Below, in pieces: positions 28,541 through 64,000 of a DNA stretch of 64,000 nt; within the stretch, counting starts at the first letter, position 1, and each line of letters begins with the position of its first letter. A program made the position numbers and the translations under genes. The notes beneath the pieces were generated by a model. The model did not search any database. It was not told where the DNA came from and saw nothing but the letters and a program-made list of their open reading frames with translations. Location: assembly GCF_020360975.1 (NCBI RefSeq), contig NW_025408669.1:6882001-6946000 (forward strand), in the 5' to 3' direction. This DNA comes from Hirsutella rhossiliensis (lineage: Eukaryota > Ascomycota > Sordariomycetes > Hypocreales > Ophiocordycipitaceae).

Positions 28541-30465
28541 AATGGAGCGCTCACAGGCACCCGCCCACTGCATCAACTGCGGGAAAGTATGGACAAAAAC
28601 CCCGCTGGGTTTCGCCTTTTCAGACTCTTCCAGCCAAGCAGAGAATGGTACAGCCAGACCAATTCCGGCTTTCTCGTGTCCGCGTGGGTGGTTCGTCGGA
28701 GTCTAGTGTGGATGGGAGCGTGTAGCATCTTGATCAGGACCACTACCCAGTAGCTAGACGACGGAGTATTAGATTGGAACCGGATGGAAAACTTCATGAG
28801 TGACGCCGAGTTGTGGATAACATATGCTGGGATGTATGGTGAAGGCACGATAATCGAGTTGTTTCAGCTGAGAAAGCGAGTCGCTCAAGTTTATGCCAAG
28901 TCGAGAGAATGTTCCGGGGTGGAGTGAGCGGACTTCTTCTCCTCAGATGAGGTCGTGCGGCGCCATTGTTTCTCTTCCCATCAGCTCCTGCCACGGAGTT
29001 GTTTGCTTGAAGCCTGCAAGGCGCCTCCTACTCAAGCAGTAGAGCTTCCCTCGCCGTCGCCCGCACAGGAGCCCAAGCGAGCGGTTAGTGATCTACCGGA
29101 TGAGACGATGCCGGGCAGAACACCCTAGCAAATGCTTTATAAAGTGGACGACCGATCCTGCCTCCGTACACCGACCCGTGGCAGACGAACCCCGTCGCAT
29201 GAGTCGCGGGCTGTGCAGCCTGCGGCACAAGCTATGCTCTCAACAGACGATTCCCGGCGCCAGATGGACAGGAAACGTGGGGGCTACAAACTATGCCTGA
29301 TTGCTCGACATGGATTGGCCCCCCTCCGCCCTGTCCTTTGCACTGGTGTTCCGAATGCACGTTTCTCCAGCTGAGGCTTTGACCTCGTTCTCGATTTTTT
29401 GCCTTATGGGAAGCCGAATGTACAGGCAAAGGAGGCAATGGTGGCGGAAGACGGAGGCGCTGTCGAAGTCCGAAACGTCCCTTCAATTTGGTCCGAGACG
29501 TATGATGCAATCTAGAGAAGGCGCAAGGAACACTCGACTGGGCCCAGCTTTGCCCCTGATCGACGCCACGGCACCCGACAAGCTATTAATAGAAGCAGAA
29601 GCAGAAGAGAAGAGCCGACGCTGAAGGCCGGCGGCTAGAGCAAGGTCGGAAAGCCTCTTTCAACACCGGCTGCGAAGCAGTTGTTGCAACGGGCATCCGT
29701 GTCCTGGTCGAGAGGCACAAAACTAGGCGGGCCACGTTGCTGCGTTCGAGGGGCGCGGCCACCTGTTTTCGCACGAGGCAAGTTTACAACGCCCTTTTCC
29801 CCAGTTTGTCTTCCCTTTTCCTTCGCTTCCATCTGTTCGTGGTGGCAGTTTTCCGAGGCCATCTCAGCCACCGGCACGCCCCCTGACAAACGTCTCAGAC
29901 GCCGCCAGGCTTGCCACAAGCAGTAAGGCTAGCAGACGATATGGACCCAGGATTCTGGACCCAGGATTCTTTTGACCATTAGGTAAGTAGCGTTTGGCTG
30001 TCAGCTCCCGTCGTCTCGGAATCACACACCGGACCATTCAATGCTGCCTTGGACGTCAGTCCTTCTTCCCTGCTCCGCCGGCTCAAGGAGGGACAGACGC
30101 GAGAAGGAGGCCGATTTCTAATACAGTCTAGTCCACATGCTGCGACATGGCCGCTCGAGGCAAATCAAACAAGCTTTTCAGACATGGTCGCCGGCCTTTC
30201 CCAGGCTAGGGCCGTCCCATAGTGCCGTGCATGAACCACGGCGGACATGGCGTGTTACAAAAATAGAAGCAGGCACGGAGTCACCTCCAGGCAGTCTACC
30301 CGAGATATAACAAGAGAGCCCGCTGGTTGCTTGCCTCTTCGAAGCTATCGTTACTCCAGCATCCATCCTTTTTGCCCCTTCTTGACCTTGACCAACGACC
30401 CGGCGTCGTCTGTTCCCCTGTGTTAATTCATCTCGGCCGGCCCGGTCCTCGTTATTTTTATTGCC

Positions 30466-30474
30466 TATTATATA
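30466..30474 (+). promoter_or_regulatory. Possible TATA box of the secreted-protein gene
   Basis: TATTATATA lies about 25-30 bp upstream of the ATG at 30498, after a CT-rich stretch. The implied 5' UTR would be very short. Confidence 0.35.
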
Positions 30475-30497
30475 CCCACCCCGCAAGCACTAGTAAA

Positions 30498-33400
30498 ATG
30501 GTTCGCATCGCTGCCGCCGCGGTTCTGGCTTGTAAGTTGCTGCTCTCCCCAGGGTTCTCCGTTTTCAACACCACTGACTCAAAACCACCAGTTGCCGCAG
30601 GGTGGCAAACCACTCAATCCCAGCAACGGTTGCTCAATATAGTTGAGCAACCGTCAACTCAATCAACTCAATCGAGTGTCTGCTGAATAAGCTTGTCAAT
30701 TCAATTCATGCTCCCGTTGATTGATGGATTGATGAGATTGCCGTTGACGGTCAGGGATCCTGTAGGGTAGGTGGCCAAGGCGAAATGTAGGTACGGATTG
30801 GGTATATAGCTACCACTAACCTTACAGGTTACTCAGGCCCGTTGTAGGTAAGCCTGCTCTCCTCTTCGGGGAACAGGGCCCCCTGTTCCGTTGGAAGAGT
30901 CGACGCGCTGCGCGCATCGACGCGCTTCACAACAAAGTTCAATCTCTCGCCTCAGTTCCACTTACACTTCTCGATTCTTCCACAACGCCTTGGCTGATCT
31001 AAACATTCCTATATGCAATGAGCGAATCTCCTGAGCCTTCTTCTACTCCCTTGCCGCCATCAGGCGATTCAGGCGACTCAGGCCCCGTTCCCCATCTCGA
31101 GTGGGATGCCTTCCCGGGCTTCACTTCCGCGGCTATACCAAGTCTCAACGCGCCGGCAAGCTCAAATCGTGGATCTGGAGCTTTGGGTTCGACATTGAAC
31201 GTCAAGCTAACGTAGATAATCGCCTCTGGGTCTGTGAGCGGTGTTTACCGAAGAAATCGCCGAAGGGACCCGTGAGCTTCGCGGCAAAGGGACCCTAAAC
31301 ATTGAGCGCCATCTACATGATGCTCACAATGTTATTGACCCATCAGGTAGACGGTTACCGAAGGGTTCTACAACCAACAAGCGTTCTATTGCCCAATTCT
31401 TCAACCTCGATGCCAATGACCAGAAGGAGCAAGCATTCATTAACAAGCTAAAAAACCAATTCGATAAAGATGTCTTCCAATCTCTCTTGCTTGCTTGGAT
31501 CACCGAGTCGAATGTTGCCTTCCGCGCAGTTGAAGCCCCTCGATTCCGGCGTCTTCTCGAATACCTCAATCCCTCGATCGCCCTGACTCAAGCCCACATG
31601 ACACACTCGACTATTCGAACGAAGCTTTTCCAAGAATACCACCAGTACAAGCATATTGTGATAAAGGAACTGAGGAGCGCCCCGGCAGATACACCTTGCG
31701 TTTGACGGCTGGAGATCGCCCAATCGCTATGCGCTTAATGGGATTGCTGCGTTCTATCTCTCTAAGGAAAAGCGGCCACAGAAGATCATCCTTGGGCTCC
31801 TGAACTCCGAGAGTCTCATACTGGCGAGAATATAGCGTCGCAGGTGGCGGAAGTGATCGAATCATTCGAGATTCAAGACAAGATCGGGTATTTCACGCTT
31901 GACAATGCGAAGAATAACGATACGGCGGTAGCAGCACTGGGGCACGTTTTTTATTTTTAAGGGGAGCAGAGACGGGGCCGCTGCTTTGGGCATATCATCA
32001 ATCTCGTGGCCAAAGCGCTGCTCTTTGGCAAAGATAATGAAGTCTTCAAATCAGAAGAGCGACTCGACCTGGACCTTGCTCGACATGATCTCTGGCGGAA
32101 GAGGGGGCCTATTGGCAAGCTCCACAACCTTGTCCACTGGATTCATCAATCGGATAGGTTAACGTACATGCTTCGGGATCTACAACGCAAGAGGGACAGT
32201 ACGAAGAAACCAGTTGACGTTCTAACGGATAACATGACACGATGGTTGTCCCATTATAAGATGATGGATCGAGCCCTTCTACTGCACGACTTTCTTGACG
32301 ACCTCGTCGCATTGGAACAGTTCGAATATACCCGAAGCAGGTCAAAGAAGAAAGACATGCCTGCATGCCTCCGAGATTCTGACCTGCTGACCGGTAACGA
32401 CTGGACAGTTGATGCATTTTGCATATGGATGAGATGAAGTGGGATCGTTGTTTCTCCAACTAAGCTATGACTGCCTCATCCTTATGTAGGAGGCAGCCAG
32501 GTCGGACTATCTAGGCGATCCGGCCGGTTTACAAGGCAGCCACATACCGATGCCTGTTCACACGGCTGCCTGTTTCACACGGCTGCCTGTTTCACACGGC
32601 TGCCTGTTCACACGGCTGCCTGTTCACATGGCTGTGCGTGCGGCAGCCGGTGTCCTTGATGCTTGGTGCCGTGCCCAACGCTCCAGTGTGCGTAGGGACA
32701 CGCAAAAAACGCATCAACAGTGATCAGCCACTTTCGGAATATTCTTAAGCACTTCGAAAATGCCATCAAGGCCCTCGAGGGGAGATGCCCAGATTCGGGT
32801 GCGTAAGGGCGGCAACCTCGTGGCATACGGAACAGCATGGGATATTATCCAAGCATTCGAATATCTCCTTGAACGATTGGAAGAGGCAAAGGAATTCGCC
32901 AAGGATGTGCCTGATTCCGAGCATTTCGCGATAAACGTCGAATTGGGGTGGAAGAAGTTGGAGAAATACTATATCAAGTTGGTTGAGTGCCCGGTATATT
33001 ATGCTGCAGTCGCTCTCCATCCCGCCTTGCGACTGCAATGGTTTGAGGAGGCTTGGGCTCATCGACCTGAATGGGTCCTTGAGGCACGACGGATTGTTCG
33101 GGGCATCTGGGAACGCGACTATAAGTCATTAATTCTCAGCGATGACGAGGCTATTCCGATGGTTAAACGTCGAAAGGTTGACGACTTGAACGAGTTCCAA
33201 CAGTTCCGACTGAGGCACCGGCTACAAGCTGGTCAGACGGCCACAACCCGTCGTGGGCCACCTACTGCCGATGAATTCGATCGCTGGACTGTTGATATCG
33301 GCGCAGATGACGGAGACATCACGGATCCGTTCCAATACTGGCAACTCAAAGAGTCAACGTATCCCAGACTTGCTCGAATGGCCTTTGATATGCTATCTAT

Positions 33401-34559
33401 ACCGCCAATGTCAGCAGAGTGCGAGAGGGCGTTCTCATTTGCTGGGCTAATGGTCACACGACTACGCAGCCGGCTTCAGGCTAACACGATCAATGCAGGC
33501 CAGGCAATTCGGTCTTGGCTGAAGGCAGGGCTAATACCCGACTACCAGGGGATTATTGATGCTTCAGTCGATGACGATGTCTTCCCCGAAGAGGTGCCCA
33601 CGAAGGACGAGAAGTTGATGGTGTTGAGGACCTTAAGTAGCTTACTAATAGGTAGGGTAGGGCATCAACTCCATCAATCAACGCAATCAATTCAACGAGG
33701 GCTTGGATTGCTCAACTCAACGAGAGGTTCGCTGATGTAAGCCGTCAATCTACTCAATTTGACTCTTTGGTTGAGTTGATTGAGTGGTTTGCCACCCTGA
33801 GTTGCCGTCTCCACCATGGCCATTCCTCTCGATGCCAGCCCCAAAAACGGTGTGGAAAAGATGCCCATCGCCGGCGGCGTGGTGAGCACACTCAGCATCG
33901 CCAAAGCCACCATCGCGGCAATCGAGTCCTCCAATACCGAGAGCAAGAACGGCACGGGAGACGTCACAGGGCCCAGCGGAGTCGCCGCTGAGCAACAAGC
34001 CAAAGCAGGTACCGAAGGGGCAGGAGGAGGAGGAGCCAGACCAGCAGGCAACGGAACAACGGCCATAGGAGGCTCGCAGCAAGGACCAAAAGCAGGTGTC
34101 GGAGGAGCTGAGGGAGGTAGCGAAACCGAGGAGCAGAGAGAAAAGGCCGAGGAGAAGGAAAAAGAGAAGAAGGAGCAGAAAGAAAAGGCCGAGGAGCAGG
34201 AGAAAGAGGGCGAGAAGCAGCAAAAAGAGACCGCGGAGCAGCAAGAGGAGATAATCAAAGCAGCCCGCGAGAAAGACGCCGAGGCACAGAAGGAGGCGGC
34301 GGAGAAACAGAAGGAGCAGATTGAGAAACAGGAGAAAGAGTCCAAGGGCGAGGCGGCCAGACCGGGCGAGGCGGCCAGACCAGGTGAGACGGCCAGACCG
34401 GGCCAGACGGCCAAACCGGGCGAAGTAACCAGACCTGGGGAGGCGAGGAGCGTGGAAGCCTCTGGCGAGAGCGCCGAATGCGGAGAGGAGGCCAAGGCCA
34501 AGGCCAAGGCCAACGAGGGCGAGGAGTGCGCCGAAGAGGCCGAGGCCGCGGCCGAATGA
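30498..34559 (+). CDS. Predicted secreted K/E-rich protein, interrupted by a hAT transposon
   Basis: Exon 1 is 30498-30531 (11 codons plus one base). A 60-nt intron follows (GTAAGT donor, CTGAC branch site, CCACCAG acceptor at 30591). Exon 2 now continues as 33802-34559 after the transposon. Without the insert the coding length is 792 nt (263 residues) in a single frame. The N-terminus starts MVRIAAAAVLA and, across the junction, continues FAVSTMA. That makes a classic signal peptide with likely cleavage after A-x-A-like TMA. The mature part is hydrophilic. A Lys/Glu/Gln-rich coiled-coil-prone stretch covers roughly 34125-34340, followed by five hexapeptide repeats of the GEAARP type (34347-34436) and an acidic Ala/Glu tail. 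No catalytic motif. Likely extracellular or wall-associated, function unknown. Whether it is expressed depends on splicing across the transposon. Confidence 0.7.
30532..30591 (+). other. First intron of the secreted-protein gene
   Basis: GTAAGT donor, CACTGACTC branch region and an ACCACCAG acceptor. The last two bases (AG, 30590-30591) are the first two bases of the 8-bp hAT target site. Confidence 0.8.
30590..30597. repeat. hAT target-site duplication, left copy
   Basis: AGTTGCCG, identical to 33800-33807 on the other side of the element. Eight bases is the hAT-superfamily length. Confidence 0.95.
30598..30618 (+). repeat. hAT terminal inverted repeat, left
   Basis: 21 bp starting CAGGGTGG, a perfect inverted match to 33779-33799. 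Confidence 0.97.
30626..30654. repeat. Subterminal palindrome of the hAT element
   Basis: ACGGTTGCTCAA, a 5-base spacer, then its exact reverse complement. Probably a transposase-binding site or hairpin just inside the left end. Confidence 0.8.
31018..33740 (+). pseudogene. hAT transposase pseudogene
   Basis: Collinear remains of one transposase. The N-terminus (ATG 31018) reads to about 31120, where the frame moves by one base. BED-finger-like WVCERCL and IERHLHDAH follow, with a second shift near 31280. The region with the first catalytic Asp (FDGWRS, about 31705) is in yet another frame. LDNAKNNDTA (about 31895) and GHIINLVAKALLFG (about 31990) follow. After 32437 about 320 bp of non-matching sequence with tandem repeats interrupts the gene. 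The frame at 32760-33740 (326 codons) is intact and ends in the hATC dimerisation motif SAECERAFSFAGLMVTRLRSRL (about 33410). With several frameshifts and stops, no functional protein is expected. Confidence 0.92.
32551..32632. repeat. Five 16-17 bp tandem units inside the hAT element
   Basis: Units of TGCCTGTT(T)CACACGGC repeated five times (lengths 16, 17, 17, 16, 16), the last with one change. They lie in a 32438-32755 segment that interrupts the transposase frame. Confidence 0.9.
33779..33799 (-). repeat. hAT terminal inverted repeat, right
   Basis: Reverse complement is identical to 30598-30618. Confidence 0.97.
33800..33807. repeat. hAT target-site duplication, right copy, carrying a second splice acceptor AG
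   Basis: AGTTGCCG. Its AG at 33800-33801 recreates the exon-2 boundary. The base before it is G (from the transposon end), so the acceptor is GAG, weaker than the original CAG. Confidence 0.93.
34347..34436 (+). repeat. 18-bp tandem repeat encoding GEAARP-type hexapeptides
   Basis: Five in-frame 18-bp units (GEAARP, GEAARP, GETARP, GQTAKP, GEVTRP) in the secreted-protein gene. Unit number may vary between strains. Confidence 0.85.
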
Positions 34560-34997
34560 AGGCGCAGGACTCTGGTCATGATGGGCACGATAGAGCTCCC
34601 TAAAGGTAGTTTTTAGTTTCTCAAACTTCTCTCACATCGTGGGTGAACAGACGTCTTGGTGCCCTGGCAACGTGGGCTGATGACGTTGGCAAGCGCTCAC
34701 GTGCCCCGAACCACTGGACGGACGGACGGCTGTTTACTGCGGCGCGTTAACCCCGTTCACGCCTTGAATTTCTTTCGCCGCTTCGACCTCTTCGCTCCCG
34801 CCTCCGCCACGACTCCCCACAACTTCCCGTCGCTCTCCTCCTTTGCTCTACGCCTCTACACCCTCGCTCTTCGCTCTCCCGCGTTTTGCTCCCTTCCGCC
34901 CATCTTCTCTCCCTCGCGCTCAGTCACCATCTGAACCTCTCTGGTTTCTCTGTGGCCGCAAAGACCCGGCAGGCCCTCTGCCTGTCTGGCCTCCAAC
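34560..34997 (+). other. Intergenic region and probable promoter of the DUF3638-family gene
   Basis: 438 bp between the stop of the secreted-protein gene and the ATG at 34998. The last 200 bp are CT-rich on the plus strand, common just upstream of fungal start sites. No TATA box seen. Confidence 0.45.
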
Positions 34998-37900
34998 ATG
35001 GCTCCCCCCAGCGGGGCTCATCTCGAGTCGGTCATTTCCGATGTCTTCCTTCCCGTCAAGCTGCCCAGCCGCAGCCAGGGCCGAGGACACGAAGATTACC
35101 TCGTCGATTGCGTCCTCACGGCCCTCAAAGACTTTCGTTCATGCGTCGGAGAGGACATGCGAGAAGCCATATGTGCCGCGACACAAATGATTCTCAACTT
35201 CAAGAGAACGAGAACAGACTTCGGAGGCGTCGATCAAGATCGACTTCAAAAACTCTTCTCAGAGTTGGCCAAAGACGATTGTAAGAGCCCTGAAACAACC
35301 CCTTGGCCGCGACTTGGATTCTGACTCCAGGGTCTCTCTAGCTTTCGTTATACCGCTCCATGTCAAAGCACAGAATGCCGGGATCGTCATTCGCCGTACC
35401 GACAAAACTGCCGTCTTCGAAGTCTTTCAACTCACGCCACCGAATCAAACTGTCCTGGCAGCTGTCGGCCGCTTGCGACGTTGCTTTCCGAGCCTCGGTG
35501 TCGCCGTCACACCCAAGATCTTTACGTCTTTGGATTTTCAAGCAACATCAGCTGCCACCATCTCCAAGATGAGCGAGCAGCATGTCTCGGAGACGGCTTC
35601 GGGTCACGCTTACCCCGATGACGAATCGATCAACCCTACCCTGGTTACTGATTTGCTATCAAGCTTCCTGCTTTCCAACGGCAAATCCTCTCCTGGAAAA
35701 GTCATTTGGAAGAACACAAGAGAAGAGGTCAATCTGTCGGATGGGAAGAGTCGTCCCTGGAAACGTTCGGCCGTCTGGTTGCTTCTACGCGTTTCTTTGC
35801 AGCAGATCATGTCCCCGACCCTCAAGGGGACTCAATCTGATGGCATTTACAAGCGATGGATGATTTTCCATCTGGCTCAGCTTCTTCGCGAGGCTACAGC
35901 AGCGAGACTGGCCAGCGAATTGATTGCGTGTATGAGCGGAAAACTGGCAAGACGTTTGGTCAAGCTCGACTTGAAGGAGCACGAACACTGGATGTCTCAA
36001 GTTTCCGAGCATTTGCGCAATGCAACCGAGCTTCTCGAGTCAAGATGGCATAAAACCATCGAGGCCCACACCCAACTCTTGGGCTTCACACGATTGGCAG
36101 CGCCTGATGTTGAGGCAGACACTCGATTCAATCTGCCGGAACTTGATTATTTCCTCGCGTCCATCGCGGATCGGCAGCTCGTCGACAAGAGACTTCTTTT
36201 CTGTCCAAAATCCCACCTTCTTTCGTGCAGTGCTGGAGAGCTACCTGCGATCGACTCCATCAAAGGCTCAAGCAAATACGAGGTGCACAATCTCTATGCC
36301 TTTGAAGAATGGGTTTCTGAACACCTTGATGGGTGGGCGCAGCGGAACGCAAAGAATCCTCAGGCCTGTTCCAAAATCGAAAGCGCCATACGAAAATACT
36401 TTGAAATCGCCCAACTCGTGTACAAAGATTCTGCCGAAGGGATCTCGGCCATGCTACTGACCCTCCTCGATCTCTGGATCGCGTGCGATAAGACGGCTTG
36501 CTCTATTCATCCTCTTCTATCAAGATATGATCACGAAGTCCCCACCGGGCCATTCGAATCTCTCTTGCTCAGGTTCAAAAGCGACATGGAAAGGCTCTTT
36601 CGCGCGGAGCGGTATCTCAAAGCACGTTCCAACAATGTAACTCGACGTGCCGAGCGCTCCGCCATTTTCGGCTTTGGAAAGGACAGATGCTTCTCCGTTG
36701 AGTTTGCTGCCGATTCACCAGAGCATCAAGGCATTCTTGACCGTATACTGGAGCAAGCAGAAGAAAGGAGGAACAGGAAGCGCCAGGAGTTTGAGCAGCT
36801 TCGTTCATTATACAACTCACACATGGAACAGTACGCGACAACCTCGTGTGCGCAGCATAATGGGCTTGACGAGGACTCGGATCCGAGCCACTCCCAGACT
36901 TGCGACAGATGCCTACACAAAGCCGAAGCAGGCAGGCTACAAATTGAGGCGTACGAGTGGCCATTGCCTTCGAGCAAGGCCGAGACCTGGTCTGTGGTCT
37001 TTGAGCTGGCCGTGCCTCCGTCCTTTCGGGCATGGAGGGATGCCAGCATCCACTTCCTCAGCGACGTGTTGGGCTACCAATCTCGTCGTCTTGTCGACGC
37101 ACGCGCACAATGTGCACTGCACACATTCGAGGGCCTGTCTGATCATTACAAGCCCAGCTCGCTAGACCAGCGTGTCAAAGTCGCCTCCGAGACGAAACCA
37201 CAGACAGCGTCTCGTCAGCGCATCCAGATTGGGTCAGATGTGACCGTGGACGATATATGCGTCGCCAACGAGATGCATTGGAGGCTCTTTGATACTTCGG
37301 CCGCAGCCTTCCTGGGACAGTTCAAAGCAACTGCCAATGTTTCGAAAAAGTGTACGATTCAGCTGCCCCCGCCGTCGGGCTCTCTCCAGAACTTTCTCTG
37401 CCGCAGCGCATTCCAAGGTCAAGGGCCACGGCCAAACGTGGTCATAGCCCAGCAATCTGCTTGTCCGGAAAAAATGTCCATCGGGGAATACAAGGCGCTT
37501 TGCGCTCTTCCATTTGGCTACCGCACACAGTGGATGAATATCCTCGTGCAACTGGCTATGCCCTCGGTCGATTAGAAGCAGATTGAGGCAGCCATTTTCG
37601 CATTGCAACTCTCCGAGCAAGCAGGCCCTGCCTTTGACAACCCTGCCAGGGACTGTCACGAGATTTTGACCTGCGAAGAGTTTGCGACGGCACTCTTGGA
37701 GAAGCTACAAACATGTCGGAAGAGAGTTGAGAAGAACTGGGAATCCTACCAAGCCGTTTGGACATTTACCATGCTTGCCGCTCGGCTCCTCTCGCTTGGG
37801 CCTGTTGAATTACGCCAGTCATGTCTGGAGTATCTTGCGGAATGTCGCAACACTTGCGTCCGCTGGCTCACGATCCTTCAGGACAAGGCGACATCGGCGA

Positions 37901-40900
37901 CAGACAACGCTGAAAGATCAGATTGTCTGGGAAAATGTCTCCAAATCGCACTGGTCTGCCTTTCCTCTTTTGACGTGGAACGCGAGTTCCTCCCCGGAAT
38001 CCTTGCGGAGTCCGGTGAAGCATTTCTGAGATGCTTGATACGCATCAGGGAAACCCAAGCGAAAGTCCACTCTGAGGATATCATGCTCAGCATCTTGATG
38101 CTCAGGTCTAAGCGTCTCGCTCGGAGAGCTCTTCCCATCATGACCGAGACTCTGAATGAAAACCGGAGGAGCCTTGACGGCGCTGTTGGCCATGCATGGC
38201 GGTCCGACCAACCCTGGGACCTTGAGGCCGAGTGCTGGGCTTCCAACCGGGCACAAGCCGATGGAGGCGTCACTATCCATCTGAATCTGCTCTTAGGGGA
38301 GCTAATAGTGGATGGACGCATATTGGGTCGACTTCCCTCCGAATATGAGGCGCATCCAGACTATGGGCTGTTTGGCTCGCGCCAGCTGGATGTGATGCCC
38401 AGCACGGAGCCTGGGTGCGCTTTTTCGGCACGAAGCAAGATTTGCGGTCACCAAGTCTCCCTGGGTCTGAGTCAATCATGTCTTGGGAACAGCGATAAGG
38501 ATCTCCTTTTGCGTGCCACGAAAGACGGAGCAGTCTACTATTTAATCCCCTCCCGGGTGTTTGTTGGGAGATTGCCCTTCAGCTTCGGCAATGACTTTGT
38601 CCACTTTTTCGACTCGGAAAATCGATCAGTCGAGTTTCGCCCAAAAACTGATCCTTGGACCTCGTGCCCAAAACATTGGTGTATAAAAGAACACGGTGGC
38701 AGTTGGCGTATTTCCAGATCCAACGGAGAAGCGTTGGTGGATCCTGCGAGCCCCACGGCAAGCAACGTCGTGGCTGTCTTTCGCCCTATCGAGGAAACCT
38801 CTTACATCCATGTCTCGTATCATGCGGCGAAGCGAGAGGTTTGCGTCCGAATTCCGCGGCTGAAGCTCGACTTTGACGTCGAAATGGGCTCCACGCTTGT
38901 TAAATCCCGTCAGTTCAGAGGCATGTGCGTGAGCAGCTACCAGGAAATTGGAACCCTGATAGGCTTGAGGAACAAGCTCTTGCTGAGTGATCAGGGTGAT
39001 TCTCTTCCGCGAATGATCCTTATCCCTGAAGGCGCGGTTTCTTCTAAACTCTCATACCTCAGCGAAGAGATTTCGCATGTTGCGGTGGAGGTTGACTCGG
39101 CCAAGAGAATCCAATCTTACCACATCGACAATCACCTAGGCAGGTTGGTCGGGAGCAGCCTCCAAAGCAAGTTGTATCTGGCTCATCTCCATGCTTTGAC
39201 ATCCTTTTGTTTGCCAGACCCGCTTACTGGGATTTCCGGGACGGAGCAAGCCCTAAAGATATTACAAAGTGGTGAAGTGAGATCCTTTCAAACATTGGAT
39301 TCCGAAAATGTCGAAACTCTGTGCAGTATCGCAAGCTTGACGCCCAAAAGACGTTACTTGAATCCAAAATCTCCCGGAATCCAGGTGACCACCTGGCAAA
39401 GCGACGGACCTGGGTCCCTTGCGCAGAGCCCGGGGTTTTACACGGCAGTGAAAGCTCTCTTCAACCAGGCGATCGAGACGCGATTTCTCTACCCCCAAAG
39501 CCAGGTTAAAATCCCTGACCTGAACTTGGGGGATGTCAACCTTCTGCGGCGAAATGCCATTCGGTCGTCGTCCTTTTTTACTTCAGCCTTTGGTGCTGAA
39601 GTGTTTACAAGCCAACATGACCGAGAATACGGCTTAAGAGAGCCCAATCTCAACGCGACGAGATCCCAAATGGCTTTACATGCGTGCCTTGTCATGGCCG
39701 AAGGAGAAGGCAAGATCATGAGCAAGTTTGAGCAAGCAAGGAAAGCCGTTTCACTCATCAGAAAGTCTCTCATGGGCAGTGGCTCAGCAACTACTTGTGG
39801 CCCTGTTGCCCCTCTGCTACCGGACTCGGAGTTTAACTTTGATGCACAATGGCTCAAGGCTCCGTATCAGATTCTGCCGGAAGCATTTCTTCGAATCCAC
39901 AAAGCTTTTGCGAGCCGAGGTTCCAGGATGAACCCCTTCGACCTCATGATGTGGATGGGAACAATCGCTTTCGCCGAGCATGCCGATGTCACCATCACCC
40001 AAACCCTTCTCGGCATTGTTTCAGTGAGGGCAGTTACAAGGATTGCAATCCCCGACTATCCTTCATATGCCTTGTCCCATGGGCCGAAGCCTAAAGTGAC
40101 AGACGTGCGAGGTGCACTGTCGAAAGCCTGCGTCGACTTTGAGACGAGCGATGAAGCAAGGCTTCCCGCGCATCCGGGAGAGGCTGGAAACGCCACCAAT
40201 CAGAGACGGAGATTGACCTTTAAAAGGCACCAGAAAGAAGCTGTTGACGAATTTGCGCAACGTGTGATTGCAAACTGGCCCAGTCAAGCCATCGAATTTC
40301 ACAGGAACGCGTCGTACATGCGTTTTTTTCACTTCGACAAAGTCTCTGATTCTTTGCGCAAGATTTTCCGTGAATGTGAAAAGAATAGTGCCATGGAATT
40401 GTATCTTGACCAGATCGCCAAAACGCTCGGGGACACGCAAGTGTCCAGGACAACTCTTTCACCACACCGCCAGGTTCGACAGCCTCGTTATGTCGCAGCA
40501 CGTCAGGTCCCGAGGTTCCTTACAGTCGCTGCGGCTCTGGAAAGAGCTTCAGCGATAGAGGCCAATGGTAGTGAGCCAGCCGTGTTGGCTCAGCTCTTGC
40601 TTGTGCCTACTCAGACTACGACGAGCCCTCGGCTGTTCGATCTGCTGAACAAGATCTCGACCCAAGCAACCACGAAGCAACACTCAATTTATGTAAACGA
40701 ATTGAAACAGAGCGTTTCATCGCTTGGAAACCAGATTCAGGGATACAAGCTTGTGAAGGCAGAACGCGGTCTTTTTGAGGTACTTGAGAGCCACCTTTCG
40801 TCCTGCAAAAAGCAGTTTGAGGACTTGTGGCGCAATTTCGAGCGCCTCGCAGGTCGACGACCTCTAGGGTCTCGTTTTCTAGACCTACTGTCATCAACCG

Positions 40901-43900
40901 AATTGGTGGCCTCGTCCTACAGCTGGCCAAGAATCACAGTCAGGACTGTCCTCGAGCAACTAAACCAGGATAACAGGGAAAGACTTGGTGAAGCAGTGAG
41001 GAATCGCATCGTTATGTTAGCAACGAGCTTAATCGAACTTCAACAAGCCGAACGTCTGCTACAGTTGGCGAGCAACGAGGCAGATTTGGTCAAGGAGATT
41101 CAGAACCAGAGGCCTCGAGCCTGGTGTCCTTTGCGACACCCCGACTACCTCCTCCTCGAGATAGAGGGCAACTTTCGGATTCGTCCCGTCCAGGAACAGA
41201 TCGCTGCCATCATGGAAAACCCGCCCAACAACCAAAACGCCGTTTTGCAGCTGAGCATGGGAGAGGGGAAGAGTACGGTGATTTCGCCTATGGTTGCCGC
41301 CTCTGTTGCCGACGGCCTGCGATTGGCAAGGGTTCTTGTGGCGAAGCCGCAATTCAGGCAAATGAATGAGATTCTCATTTCAAAGCTTGGAGGTCTTCTC
41401 GGGCGCCGAGTCTTTTATTTGCCATTTGCAAGAAAAATCAATATCCGGGAGGCCGAGGCGCAGCATATTCACAAAATTTGCACCGACTGCAGAGATGAAG
41501 GAGGGGTTCTGCTCGTACAGCCCGAGCATATACTTTCGCTGCAGTTGATGGCCATTCTCAAGAGCACAGAAAACGACAAGAGCCCAGAGTTGGGTCAAAT
41601 CCTTCTGAAGACGCTGACCCTGTTCCAAAACCATTCTCAGGATCTGATTGACGAGTCTGACGAGAACTTCTCCCCAAAGTTCGAACTTATCTACACAAAG
41701 GGGAAGCAAGGCCCCATCGGTTTCAGTCCGTACCGCTGGCTGCTCATTCATGAATTGTTATCCATGGTTGCCAAGTTCGCAAAGCAAGTTCAGCGTGAAT
41801 TGCCTCTCGCCATCGAGATTGACGACCAGCACCGGGACCGATTTCCGCGGGTTCGACTTCTTTCTGAAGAGGCTGGCGCCAAGCTCAACAGTCTGATTGC
41901 GGCACATGTCTGTCGCGTCGGCCTCAGCTCCGGATTGGCGATCGGACGCCAGTCTCACTCTGTCAAAGATGCAATTCTTCGTTACATAATAGACAGAGAT
42001 GTCGACATTTCGGTCATTGAGAAAGTCCAGACCAGTGTCTGGACGGATTCGACTAAGGATGCTATTTTGCTGCTACGTGGTCTCCTGGCGGGTGGCGTAC
42101 TCGCGTTCGCTCTGGCTAGTAAACGGTGGACAGTGGATTATGGGCTGGTTTGGAATCGCCAGCCAGCCACGAAGCTTGCGGTTCCATACCGAGCCAAAAA
42201 CGTCCCTTCGCTGGCCTCAGAGTTCAGCCACCCCGATCTTCAGATCATTCTGTCAACCCTGTCATTCTACTACGGCGGGATGAGTGACGAAGACTTGGTC
42301 GCGTCTCTCAAGCATGTGTCGCAGTCGGACCAAGCCAAAAATGAATTCGCGAACTGGACGGCCAGTACGAGTCTCTCAGAGGCTTTTTGCACCCTGGACG
42401 GACTAAACCTAAGCGACGAGACGCGCACCCAAGAAGTCTTTTCCGCTCTGAGATACTCGAAAGGGGCGATTGACTACTTTCTATCTCGCATTGTGTTTCC
42501 AAAGGCGATCAAGGAATTTCCCTCCAAGCTTGCGGCCTCAGGCTGGGACATTGGACGCATCAAGCCCTATCCAACCACAGGGTTCTCGGGTACAAAGGAT
42601 TCATCCCATGCCCTCCCTCTCGAGATGAGGCAAATTGAAGCTCCAAACCAGGAGCACACAGATGCTATGGTCCTCAGTAACATGCTTGCGGAGGGAAACA
42701 ATGTCGTCTTGCTATCCGAGATGGGACACAACGGGCCTTGTTTGGGAAGTCAGCTTATAAAGGCTATCGTGGGTATGAGACCGGGCGTGAGAGTGATCTT
42801 GGACGTGGGAGCTCAAGTCTTGGAGATGTCGAATGAGCAGGTTGCCCAGGCCTGGCTGGAATTGACCGAAAATCACGACAAGACAGAAGCGGCTCTATTT
42901 TGTGACGAGGATGACGAGTTTGTCGTCATCGACCGGCGAGGACACAAGGAGCCTCTGAAAACGTCGCCGTTCGCCAAGCAGCTTGATTTGTGCCTAATTT
43001 TCATGGACCAGGCCCGATGCTTCGGAACTGATTTGCAGCTCCCTCTTTCGTCGAGGGCGGCGGTGACCCTGGGCGCCAAGACGACAAAGGACAAACTTGC
43101 TCAGGCCTGCATGAGAATGCGCAAACTGGGCGCCGGTCAAACGGTTGTCTTTTGCGTCCCTCAGGAAATCGAGATGCGCATCCGGGAACAGCCGTGGCTT
43201 GGCTCCGGCCCAATCGAAGTCAGCGACATTTTGTGTTGGAGCATTCGCGAAACCTGGACCGACTGCCAGCAGTTAATCGGGGTCTGGGCCGTCCAAGGAA
43301 AGAGATATGAGAGACAGCGAATCCTCTGGGGGCAGTCAAGAGATGACGAGAGGCTCTGTCTGAGCAAGGATCTGGCCGAAAAGTTCCTGGAAAACGAGGC
43401 GCAAACCCTCGAGAGCCGGTACAAACCGGACTATGTCGAACCTCCAAGCATTGCAGAGCTGCCAGGAGATCCCAGCAACTTGGCACAGATCGTTGAGCGG
43501 TGCCAAAAGTTTCACGTCCAAATCCAGACTGCATCGTTGCAGGAACAGCAGGAACGAGAGCTGGCTCCCGAGCTAGAGGAAGAATCTCAAGTTCAACGGG
43601 TCGTGGACGCAACACCAGCTGATCACAGACTGCACCCGAAAGTGAGGGAATTCATCGAGAATGGTTGCTTGCCTCCGAGCAACAATGGCTTTCTATGGGC
43701 CTTTCAGACTCTGGAGAACACAACAGCAGCCACACACTTCGATGTCCGGAAGTTTCCTCGCCAGCTGCGATGCACTCATGACTTCGCCAGCACTGTCAAG
43801 GAAGGGGCGCCATCAGACGCGTACCAGCGTGGGGTCCAATTCGTTTTGACTAGCCACAAGGCCGAGAGAAGGGAGACGATCGTCGTCCTCATAAGTCCTT

Positions 43901-44487
43901 ATGAAGCAGAAAAGCTCTATGCCTCGATACAGGCTTCGGAGCACGTGCTACTGAGACTCTATGCGCCTCGGCAGAATCAGGTTTACGCGCCACTGAACCT
44001 CGACCTCTTCCACATTGGAAAGGCACCATCCAACCACCCGATTCCACGCGATCTCATGATTCAGCTGAACCTCTTTGCTGGCCAGCTGTGGTTTGACTCA
44101 TATCAAGAATACGTCGACGTCTGCCAATACTTATGTTTAACTTCGGGAGACCCAGCCGACGGCGACGACGCGGCAGTCGACGGCTTCATTGAGCCGGGAA
44201 GACGAGTGCGCCCGCATCGCGGCTGGACAAACTTTGCCGAAAGCCCCGTGCAGTTCCTCAAGGTACTCATGGCCAAGATCCGATACAGTGGCAACTCAAG
44301 CATCGAGCGGACACATGTTGGGAAGATGCTCAACGGCGTGATCCTGACCGAGGACGACTTTGAGCCTCGGCCGAAGAGAAAGGCGGAGAGCCAGCTGACT
44401 CGCGAGGACGATGCAGAGATAAGACTCTTTGTTCGTGATGTTGTCGAGGTGGGGATGGATGTCAGGCTGGATGAAACTTGGAGCTAA
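34998..44487 (+). CDS. Giant DUF6606/DUF3638/DUF3645 family protein with an in-frame TAG
   Basis: Exon 1 is 34998-35280, the intron 35281-35330 (GTAAGA donor, CTGAC branch, CAG acceptor), and exon 2 35331-44487. Together they make about 3,146 codons in one frame, the usual size of this fungal family. A TAG at 37573-37575 (about codon 843) is the only stop before 44485, and family-like sequence continues directly on both sides. The N-terminal part fits DUF6606. The DUF3638 region holds a P-loop, LQLSMGEGKSTVISP, near residue 2070. DUF3645 begins near residue 2396 (IILSTLSFYYGGMSD). Then come ILDVGAQVLEMS and GTDLQLP with ACMRMRKLGAGQ near 2660-2710. Automated annotation often calls the family ubiquitinyl hydrolase, but its activity is not established to my knowledge. 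Annotation pipelines would probably split it into two genes. Confidence 0.85.
37573..37575 (+). other. In-frame TAG stop inside the DUF3638-family gene
   Basis: The frame reads AMPSVD, TAG, KQIEAAIF without loss of phase. No intron of workable length removes it. A single-base change (for example TGG or CAG to TAG) would account for it. Confidence 0.85.
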
Positions 44488-61931: not shown

Positions 61932-64000
61932 CTACCTTGGTCCATTGCCTCGAGCCGCAGCTCCTTGACATTTGCTTCCAGTCGAGGCACCAGTCATATT
62001 CAGTCTTGCTGTAGCGCAATGGCAAGCCCATTGCCTTTCGGTATGCCTGGTTGGTCTTGAGACTGCCGCGAGGCTGTGCTCTATACCAAGAGTCTCTTTC
62101 CTGACATACCTCTGATAGATGGCTCGTGGGTCATCATATAATAGATTCTCTGTAGTCTCTGTAGTCTCTGCAATTGCTGTAGAGACTGTAGAGACCGTAG
62201 TGACTGCAACTGTCATTTTCTCCATGACTGCTGCAGTCTGCGCAGTCTCTGGAACTGCTACCGTCTGTACAGTCTGTGCAGTCTGTGCAGTCCCTGCAAT
62301 TGCTGCAGTCTCTGCAGTCTGTGCCGCCCGTGCCTCTGCCCGCTGCAGTATGTCGCTATAGCGTAAAGGACAATTGCGAGATGTCATGATGTGCCCTTGC
62401 TGGTGGCATTTGCTGCATGTAGGCGGCGCCTTTGGCCGTAGATCTGACTCTATGGCTTCAAATGCACTTGGCTCGCGCTGTGTGGATGACTGTGATATCC
62501 TTGATGCGGCGACAAGTTGGTCTAGTCGCCGACGAGGCTCTATGAGGACCTGACCAATCTCTTTGTTATCCCGTCGAAGGCGCCAATGTGTATGAAAATG
62601 TTGTAGCCGGAGGGGCAGATCTTCCACTATGAGAGACTGTAATGCGTGCGCACAAGGGAGACCGCGAGACTTGGTGAAGCTGCCTGTGCAAGATGGGGTG
62701 TTTTTCTCGTTGAGGCGCTTGTGTTGCTTTGCAACCTGTCGCAAGGCTTCGTGTGATACCCAGCCACGTACCGTGCTATATACGGTTCCAGAGAGCTCAA
62801 TTGGCATCCGTATATGCTGCCTGGCTTGGTTGGCTTGTAGCTCGGCCAGTTGGTTGAGGAGAGCTTGCTTGATTGCCCTCGTTGCCTCGAAGAGGTCTAA
62901 TGTTGACTTCTTAAGGTGACTCTTCAATAATGCGTGGATGCCTTCCACCCGGGAAGTAGCCACATTGCCGAAGTGAGCATATTGATCGACCCAGGCCTTG
63001 ACGAGCTTTTCCTTATACGGGTCCAACCAGGTTTCCCGTATGTAGCTAACCTCCTTGACGTATCGTGGCACAAAGCGCTTCTCGAGCTCTTCAACTTGTT
63101 GATCAAATGTCTCCTCATCTTTCGAGCCCACGATTGAGTGCCAATACCCAAAGAACTCAGCCCACCTCTCATCACTATTAGAGTCCTCATCGTCACGGTC
63201 GAAAGCTGGTTTGCAATAGCTAAGCACCGCCTTATTCGCATGCCAGATGCAAAGCAGAGACTTGGACGCAGGAAAGCACCGGGAAATTGCGTTTATGCAG
63301 GCGAGGCAGCGATCTGTCAGGATAACCGATGGCTGGCGAATGTCATATAACTCGTATATCGATTGGAGTTGGTCCAGTGCCCAGATATAGTCATTTTCGT
63401 CTTCACCACTGAGGAAGGCAAAGGCAATACAGAATGACCGCTGACAGGCATCAACGCCGATCATATCGAGCAGTGGCATCTTATATTTGTTCGTCTTGTA
63501 TGTGCAGTCTAGCAGTAGTAATTCTGGGTATGCGTTGAGGTATCCTAGAGACGCTGGGTGTGCGAATAAGACTGCTGTGACTCGGCCATCATGATCAAGC
63601 TGTATGCGGCTCTGGAACCCCTCGTTGTCAAGCTCATTGGCAAGGGCATGCATTGTGCTCTGGCCAGCAAGGAGCTCTCGTCTGCGCTGTGCGATACAGT
63701 TATATATGTCTTGCTGTGTCGCTCCTTGGGCAGTCTGAGAGCTCTGGCGCATATATGTCCGGATATCCTTTGGTGCTATGCCAGCGCTTGAGAGGTTCCC
63801 AATAGCTGACTGGTCAGTTGAGGAGAGGGCACGATGAGCTGGATGTGCTGTAATATGCAGACTGGGCTCATGGTTGTGGACCGACTTCTCCTCGCCTGGG
63901 CGATGCCTGACATACCAGTACGACTTATCAAGGCTCTCTTTCGCATTGATGGAAAACTGGCATCCAGTGATACGGGAGCTTGTAGACCGTTGCCGATCAG
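61932..64000 (-). CDS. Mutator-like (MULE) transposase, 5' partial, C-terminal frameshift
   Basis: Open minus-strand frame continuing past the window end (N-terminus missing). Visible parts in order are a FAR1-like region with GCQFSINAKES and HNHEPS near 63.8-63.98 kb, then a MULE DDE domain (YPELLLLDCTYKTNKYKMPLL, GVDACQRSFCIAFAF, VILTDRCLACINAI, LCIWHANKAV). A SWIM zinc finger (CTGSFTKSRGLPCAHAL, about 62.65 kb) and a CCHC knuckle (CSKCHQQGHIMTSRNC, about 62.39 kb) follow. After a Thr/Ala/Gln/Glu-rich repeat tract the frame appears to slip by one base near 62090-62105. The continuation that looks family-like (GSLKTNQAYRKAMGLPLRYSKTEYDW to RQWTKVEMMAYLDW) is in the frame ending at 61762. The core domain is intact, so activity depends on the missing N-terminus and the shifted tail. 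Confidence 0.88.
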   Translation of the reverse strand, partial: DRQRSTSSRITGCQFSINAKESLDKSYWYVRHRPGEEKSVHNHEPSLHITAHPAHRALSSTDQSAIGNLSSAGIAPKDIRTYMRQSSQTAQGATQQDIYNCIAQRRRELLAGQSTMHALANELDNEGFQSRIQLDHDGRVTAVLFAHPASLGYLNAYPELLLLDCTYKTNKYKMPLLDMIGVDACQRSFCIAFAFLSGEDENDYIWALDQLQSIYELYDIRQPSVILTDRCLACINAISRCFPASKSLLCIWHANKAVLSYCKPAFDRDDEDSNSDERWAEFFGYWHSIVGSKDEETFDQQVEELEKRFVPRYVKEVSYIRETWLDPYKEKLVKAWVDQYAHFGNVATSRVEGIHALLKSHLKKSTLDLFEATRAIKQALLNQLAELQANQARQHIRMPIELSGTVYSTVRGWVSHEALRQVAKQHKRLNEKNTPSCTGSFTKSRGLPCAHALQSLIVEDLPLRLQHFHTHWRLRRDNKEIGQVLIEPRRRLDQLVAASRISQSSTQREPSAFEAIESDLRPKAPPTCSKCHQQGHIMTSRNCPLRYSDILQRAEARAAQTAETAAIAGTAQTAQTVQTVAVPETAQTAAVMEKMTVAVTTVSTVSTAIAETTETTENLLYDDPRAIYQRYVRKETLGIEHSLAAVSRPTRHTERQWACHCATARLNMTGASTGSKCQGAAARGNGPR
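62145..62335. repeat. Degenerate GCAGTCTCTGCA/GTCTGTGCA minisatellite in the MULE gene
   Basis: Many copies of a 6-9 bp CTGCAGTCT-like unit. On the coding strand they encode runs of QTAETAAIAGTAQ and TTVSTVSTAIAETTETTE type. Confidence 0.7.

What the first reader, a model, noticed from the sequence alone, without database searches (positions are those of the whole stretch)
30498..33815. Transposon insertion duplicated a splice acceptor and may behave as a spliceable intron
The 8-bp target site AGTTGCCG begins with the AG of the host intron's acceptor. After insertion there is one acceptor before the element (30590-30591) and a second directly after it (33800-33801). Splicing 30531 to 33802 would remove the whole 3.2-kb hAT element and restore the exact reading frame and the signal peptide. 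Using the upstream acceptor gives a short chimeric peptide ending at 30686. The downstream acceptor is weaker (GAG not CAG) and lacks the native branch site, so leaky expression is plausible.
Basis: partly seen in the sequence, partly recalled or inferred. Interest (0 to 1): 0.75.

Follow-up and report, generated by a model that had tools for sequence, protein, structure and literature searches.

The report
Jumping gene landed beside intron end
A recently moved hAT transposon sits six bases inside the second exon of a small fungal gene; it copied the intron's final AG by chance, but the original splice signals are intact and look much stronger, so the gene is most likely switched off rather than rescued by splicing.

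Summary
The anatomy is real. A 3,202-bp hAT element (30598-33799) has perfect 22-bp terminal inverted repeats and a perfect 8-bp target duplication, AGTTGCCG, whose first AG is the acceptor of a convincing 60-nt host intron (30532-30591). A second AG therefore lies just after the element (33800-33801), and by frame arithmetic 30531-to-33802 splicing would keep the frame of the uninterrupted gene.

That the element behaves as a spliceable intron is weakly supported. Donor, CTGAC branch site and CAG acceptor of the native intron are intact upstream, so ordinary splicing should read into the element and stop at 30686. The distal route needs a 3,270-nt intron, has no CTRAY branch site within 65 nt, and ends in a GAG that follows two nearer GAGs. 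The family has at least 21 complete, nearly identical copies in this genome. Of their 20 distinct target sites only this one starts with AG (about 1.25 expected by chance): a chance landing, not targeting. Most likely: a recent loss-of-function insertion. That a target duplication can supply a splice site is established for Introners, and Ds elements are known to be spliced. No RNA data were available.

The parts
30498..30531 (+). Exon 1 coding part, 34 nt, ends in codon position 1; encodes the start of a hydrophobic N-terminus (by eye)
30532..30591 (+). Native host intron, 60 nt: GTAAGT donor, CTGAC branch (A at 30577, 14 nt before the end), CAG acceptor; wholly intact
   Evidence: only strict signature on both strands of 26-60 kb
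30590..30597 (+). Left 8-bp target duplication AGTTGCCG; AG = native acceptor, last 6 bp = start of exon 2
30598..33799 (+). hAT transposon, 3,202 bp (18 complete copies without the nested repeat are 2,875-2,893 bp)
30598..30619 (+). Left terminal inverted repeat, 22 bp
30684..30686 (+). Stop codon reached after normal (proximal) splicing and also without splicing
32409..32717 (.). Nested repeat of about 309 bp (MITE-like) with 16-bp tandem units inside, flanked by CAG on both sides; interrupts the transposase region
   Evidence: ends by hand from the junctions printed
33315..33521 (+). hAT C-terminal dimerisation domain PF05699 (in ORF 32760-33740)
   Evidence: E 1.7e-17
33778..33799 (-). Right terminal inverted repeat, 22 bp
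33798..33800 (+). TGA in the host frame across the element/host border; blocks read-through fusion in the host frame
33800..33807 (+). Right copy of the target duplication; its AG (33800-33801) is the proposed distal acceptor, a GAG
33816..34559 (+). Main coding part of the interrupted gene (exon 2): 247-aa ORF from an ATG in CACCATGG context; low-complexity Lys/Glu/Ala-rich, no Pfam family, no homologue found

Best explanation
A recent cut-and-paste insertion of a member of a young, multi-copy hAT family landed by chance 6 bp inside exon 2 of a small fungal gene, so that the 8-bp target duplication includes the intron's terminal AG. The native donor, branch site and acceptor remain intact upstream, so the pre-mRNA should be spliced normally to 30592, read 29 sense codons into the element and stop at 30686, giving a 42-aa chimeric peptide and probably an unstable message (inferred). 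The allele is therefore most likely null or strongly reduced. The second AG is a by-product of the duplication and at most a rare cryptic acceptor.
For: Shown: perfect TIRs and target duplication; hAT domain E 1.7e-17; 21 complete copies, 0-10 substitutions each from their majority base, 20 of 21 with perfect 8-bp duplications, 20 distinct targets (L002 and L018 share one); intact native intron that matches 14 introns resolved in kinase genes of the same genome: 47-131 nt, 9 CAG and 5 TAG, branch A 9-22 nt before the end; near the distal AG the closest CTRAY has its A 66 nt away, GAGs at 33774 and 33783 come first, length 3,270 nt; exon 2 codon-usage score +0.214 in frame against -0.057 or less in the other five frames. 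Inferred: use of the proximal acceptor, fate of the message.
Against: No RNA data; splice choice is inferred from sequence. The distal acceptor is not impossible: TTGAT (A 22 nt) and TTGAC (A 39 nt) lie upstream, TTRAY branch sites are used in about 4-5% of the Fusarium introns (PMC5677156 passages; table and text disagree on 3.96 or 4.99%; TTGAT is the one motif there without EST support), and RAG acceptors occur. One of three ambiguous gaps that I dropped (L072) has a GAG candidate. The host gene has no homologue, so its structure rests on this sequence alone, and its high codon score may owe something to its repetitive composition.
Confidence: 0.78

Rival explanations
1. One reading: the distal acceptor at 33800-33801 is used often enough that the whole hAT element is removed as part of a 3,270-nt intron, leaving leaky expression of the normal protein.
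For: AG duplicated and frame arithmetic exact; weak TTRAY candidates 22 and 39 nt upstream. Ds elements of maize (hAT, recalled) are spliced as introns (passage in the review PMC2836002).
Against: Native intron complete and proximal; GAG acceptor behind two nearer GAGs; length more than six times the longest of 2,022 Fusarium introns (PMC5677156); 0 of 14 introns here use GAG (long introns could not be found by that script).
Confidence: 0.07
2. Exon 2 is still expressed without splicing: transcripts starting in or running through the 3' end of the element are translated from ATG 33816, giving the protein without its signal sequence. (Not exclusive of the best explanation.)
For: ATG in CACCATGG context, first in-frame start after the TGA at 33798-33800; transposase ORFs read in the same direction as the gene.
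Against: No promoter shown near the 3' end (none was searched for); upstream ATGs in a read-through message would be expected to capture ribosomes (recalled).
Confidence: 0.2
3. The gene really begins at ATG 33816; 30498-30591 is untranslated or unrelated sequence and the element sits in a leader or promoter, so the protein is unaffected and no acceptor was duplicated.
For: Exon 1 codes only 11 full codons; the intron is 3n long with no in-frame stop, so nothing in the frame demands it; no homologue confirms the N-terminus.
Against: Complete strict intron signature 34 nt after an ATG, expected 0.1 times per strand in 34 kb (pattern chosen afterwards); phase fits on both sides; exon 1 encodes a hydrophobic start as in secreted proteins (by eye).
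Confidence: 0.12

Closest known systems
Fungal hAT DNA transposons (Restless of Tolypocladium inflatum; features recalled, papers seen only as search listing)
   Same: hAT dimerisation domain, short TIRs, 8-bp target duplications, many dispersed copies
   Different: No transposase sequence comparison with Restless was made here; this family carries in 3 of 21 complete copies a nested repeat of about 309 bp
Maize Ds elements spliced as introns (review passage PMC2836002; details recalled)
   Same: hAT-superfamily insertion in a gene, with the possibility of splicing from nearby sites
   Different: Splicing of Ds was shown on RNA (recalled); here there is no RNA, and the native intron with its own acceptor remains intact upstream
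Introners (PMC9860276, passages read)
   Same: A splice site can be co-opted from the target duplication
   Different: Introner families have median lengths of 30-654 nt and make new introns at many sites; here one 3.2-kb element at one of 20 target sites; that paper found no TSDs or TIRs in ascomycete Introner families

Membership tests
hAT transposon superfamily | hAT C-terminal dimerisation domain in the transposase | tested here: met
   PF05699, E 1.7e-17; also in copy L012, E 2e-17. The other ORFs tried, two in the window and the 401-aa N-terminal one of L019, match no Pfam family
hAT transposon superfamily | 8-bp target site duplication | tested here: met
   20 of 21 complete copies perfect, 1 (L012) with 7 of 8
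hAT transposon superfamily | Short terminal inverted repeats beginning CAG (motif recalled) | tested here: met
   22/22 bp in the window
hAT transposon superfamily | Catalytic DDE residues | not tested
   Reading frame of the window copy is interrupted; no alignment to a solved hAT transposase was made
TE-derived spliceable intron (Ds-like) | Transcript with the element spliced out | not testable with these tools
   No RNA data
TE-derived spliceable intron (Ds-like) | Good acceptor and branch site at the distal end | tested here: not met
   GAG; nearest CTRAY has its A 66 nt away; nearer ones are TTRAY or CTCAA
Introner family | Recurrent insertion into genes as introns with recruited splice sites | tested here: not met
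   1 of 21 complete copies has an intron-like acceptor within 20 bp of the element, 1 of 20 distinct targets begins with AG (only introns ending towards the element were sought, in 400 bp on each side)

The most novel reading that the evidence does not exclude
The duplicated AG is really used at low level or under some condition, so that a hAT element has turned a 60-nt fungal intron into a 3.27-kb one with two competing acceptors, one giving a truncated peptide and one the normal secreted protein: an intron extension caught at its origin, made by the target duplication alone.
Probability: 0.07. Interest if true: 0.6.

Novelty: new member of a known kind. Interest (0 to 1): 0.25.

Why it matters
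If the distal acceptor were used, this would be a clean natural test of how fungal spliceosomes choose between a near, strong acceptor and a far, weak one, and of how transposons enlarge introns. As it stands it is an ordinary insertion allele in a young hAT family; the broader point is that a duplicated AG at an element border is not by itself evidence of an intron.

Tried and rejected
Targeting of splice acceptors by the family: rejected, 1 of 20 distinct target sites begins with AG (about 1.25 expected at random), 0 end in CT, no clear motif beyond some G richness; sites of partial or interrupted copies (L022-L025 and others) were not counted. Two copies, L006 and L009, have intron-like signatures further than 40 bp from the element. 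Paralogue or second allele with an empty site in this genome: none seen; 29000-30597 has 1 match, itself, and 33808-34700 has itself plus weak 68% matches on C10 to its repetitive part. Orthologue showing the ancestral structure: none found; with the whole exon-2 ORF 7,996 candidates were scored, none at E <= 0.001, and with residues 1-85 there were 143 candidates, none at E <= 10. Species: not determined. The one search that named relatives used a MULE transposase at 61932-63752; 120 of 410 hits were listed, among them many named Fusarium (first three 58-66% identity), Hirsutella (64%) and Metarhizium (57%), also Apiospora, Ceratocystis and one beetle record, so a filamentous ascomycete near the Hypocreales is likely; it was a poor query because transposons move, and it used one of three searches. 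Transposase called dead by frameshifts: rejected as unsafe; summed over copies there are 105 deleted positions (21 copies) and 40 inserted ones (the 18 copies without the nested repeat) against 81 substitutions, mostly in short runs and CT repeats, which suggests uncorrected long-read indels (inference). Genome-wide intron model: not possible without annotation or file; replaced by 14 introns taken from 24 gaps between kinase-domain exon hits in 20 stretches: 5 gaps were open in the same frame (not introns), 2 had no candidate, 3 stayed ambiguous (L072, L078 first gap, L082) and were dropped; L072 has a GAG among its candidates. Candidates were ranked by donor and CTRAY branch site, not by acceptor type; where several AGs tied I took the one nearest the branch site (L070, L071, L075, L076, L077); in L069 I took TAG at 12 nt with the GTAAGT donor over CAG at 7 nt with a poorer one. 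Paper search for transposons removed by splicing with five of six terms gave 0 papers. ARAGORN with the bacterial code found no tRNA in the window.

Full report
What was checked. The window lies in an 81.8-Mb, 40-contig genome, contig C3:6882001-6946000. Every coordinate of the finding is right. The element is bounded by perfect 22-bp inverted repeats and a perfect 8-bp target duplication, and its last ORF carries the hAT dimerisation domain (PF05699, E 1.7e-17).

The host gene. Exon 1 (30498-30531) ends in codon position 1. The 60-nt intron has GTAAGT, CTGAC and CAG with the branch A 14 nt before the intron end. That strict signature occurs once on the two strands of 26-60 kb, against 0.1 expected per strand in 40 Markov random sequences; the pattern was chosen after seeing this intron. 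It looks like the 14 introns that I could resolve in kinase genes of the same genome: 47-131 nt, 9 CAG and 5 TAG, none GAG, branch A 9-22 nt from the end (14 of 24 gaps, the rest being 5 open in frame, 2 without candidate and 3 ambiguous, one of these with a GAG candidate). Exon 2 (33816-34559) scores as coding in frame (+0.214 against -0.057 or less in the other five; training on the ORF at 37603-44487; four other ORFs score 0.06 to 0.141 in frame and a non-coding control -0.131 to -0.045). It is low-complexity, which may lift that score. It has no Pfam match, has no other good match in the genome and found no homologue.

The element family. At least 21 complete copies lie on 12 contigs (the search scored 40 of 124 candidates, so this is a lower bound). 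They differ by 0-10 substitutions from the majority base. 20 of 21 have perfect 8-bp duplications, one has 7 of 8. Among 20 distinct targets 1 begins with AG and 0 end in CT. Looking for introns that end towards the element in 400 bp on each side, only the window copy has an intron-like acceptor within 20 bp. So the landing at a splice acceptor is chance. L002 and L018 share one target; some other flanks share repeats further out. Three copies (window, L002, L003) carry a nested repeat of about 309 bp flanked by CAG, which also occurs at 7 listed places without other parts of the element.

What splicing should do. The insertion leaves donor, branch site and acceptor of the native intron untouched; in effect the element is inserted 6 bp into exon 2. 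Normal splicing to 30592 gives 43 codons including the stop at 30684-30686. The distal acceptor requires a 3,270-nt intron. The nearest CTRAY has its A 66 nt upstream; nearer candidates are TTGAC (39 nt) and TTGAT (22 nt), and GAGs at 33774 and 33783 come before the one at 33800. [quoted passage not shown] Distal use is possible but should be rare. I put appreciable use at 7%.

Other ways to make the protein. The host frame is closed by TGA at 33798-33800, so without the distal splice exon 2 would be translated from ATG 33816, which has a CACCATGG context. That would give a product without the hydrophobic N-terminus. This is not shown, but I rate it above the distal splice. Excision of the element would be expected to leave most of both duplications behind (recalled for hAT elements), hence two AGs 8 nt apart; this was not tested.

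Comparison with what is known. Splicing of Ds (hAT) elements in maize has long been known (review passage in PMC2836002). Recruitment of splice sites from target duplications is described for Introners, where ascomycete families lack TSDs and TIRs (PMC9860276, passages). So the principle is not new, and the present case lacks RNA evidence and good distal signals.

Verdict. Observation confirmed; interpretation partly supported; a new member of a known kind (a young hAT insertion with a fortuitously copied acceptor dinucleotide). Interest 0.25.

Noticed in passing
window 5001-25500: A 20-kb AT-rich block (about 28% GC over most of it) with extreme RIP-like dinucleotide indices (TA/AT 1.57-1.86; (CA+TG)/(AC+GT) 0.09-0.33), while the hAT element, with at least 21 near-identical complete copies, shows none (0.59; 1.33). 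The family seems to have spread after, or without, the process that mutated that block.
   Followed up: partly
L002 (C8:1210397-1213593) and L018 (C19:1020360-1023243): Both copies sit in the same target with the same duplication and flanks 99.3-99.4% identical over 1,232 and 425 bp, yet only L002 carries the nested repeat. L001-L004 share a G at the site equivalent to 31201. L002 may be the source of the two other repeat-bearing copies, including the window's (inference).
   Followed up: partly
window 32409-32717: Nested MITE-like repeat of about 309 bp with TTGATGC ends, CAG on both sides and five 16-bp tandem units; 7 further places listed at 100% identity without other parts of the element, so it too moved recently.
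   Followed up: partly
hAT copies L001-L021: Copies differ more by small gaps in runs and CT repeats (105 deleted positions in 21 copies, 40 inserted in the 18 without nested repeat) than by substitutions (81), which suggests uncorrected long-read indels in repeats; transposase frameshifts in this assembly should not be trusted.
   Followed up: partly
window 33737-33801: A GTAAGC donor at the end of the last transposase ORF starts a 65-nt stretch that ends with the copied AG, so a small intron inside the element's 3' end could use the same distal acceptor; out of the host frame by hand count.
   Followed up: no
G000, contigs C6, C13, C19, C1: A second, diverged hAT subfamily about 69-74% identical to this one over the transposase region, at 7 listed places.
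   Followed up: no
window 61932-63752: MULE transposase ORF on the minus strand, 410 relatives (120 listed), many of the named ones from Fusarium and other Hypocreales.
   Followed up: no
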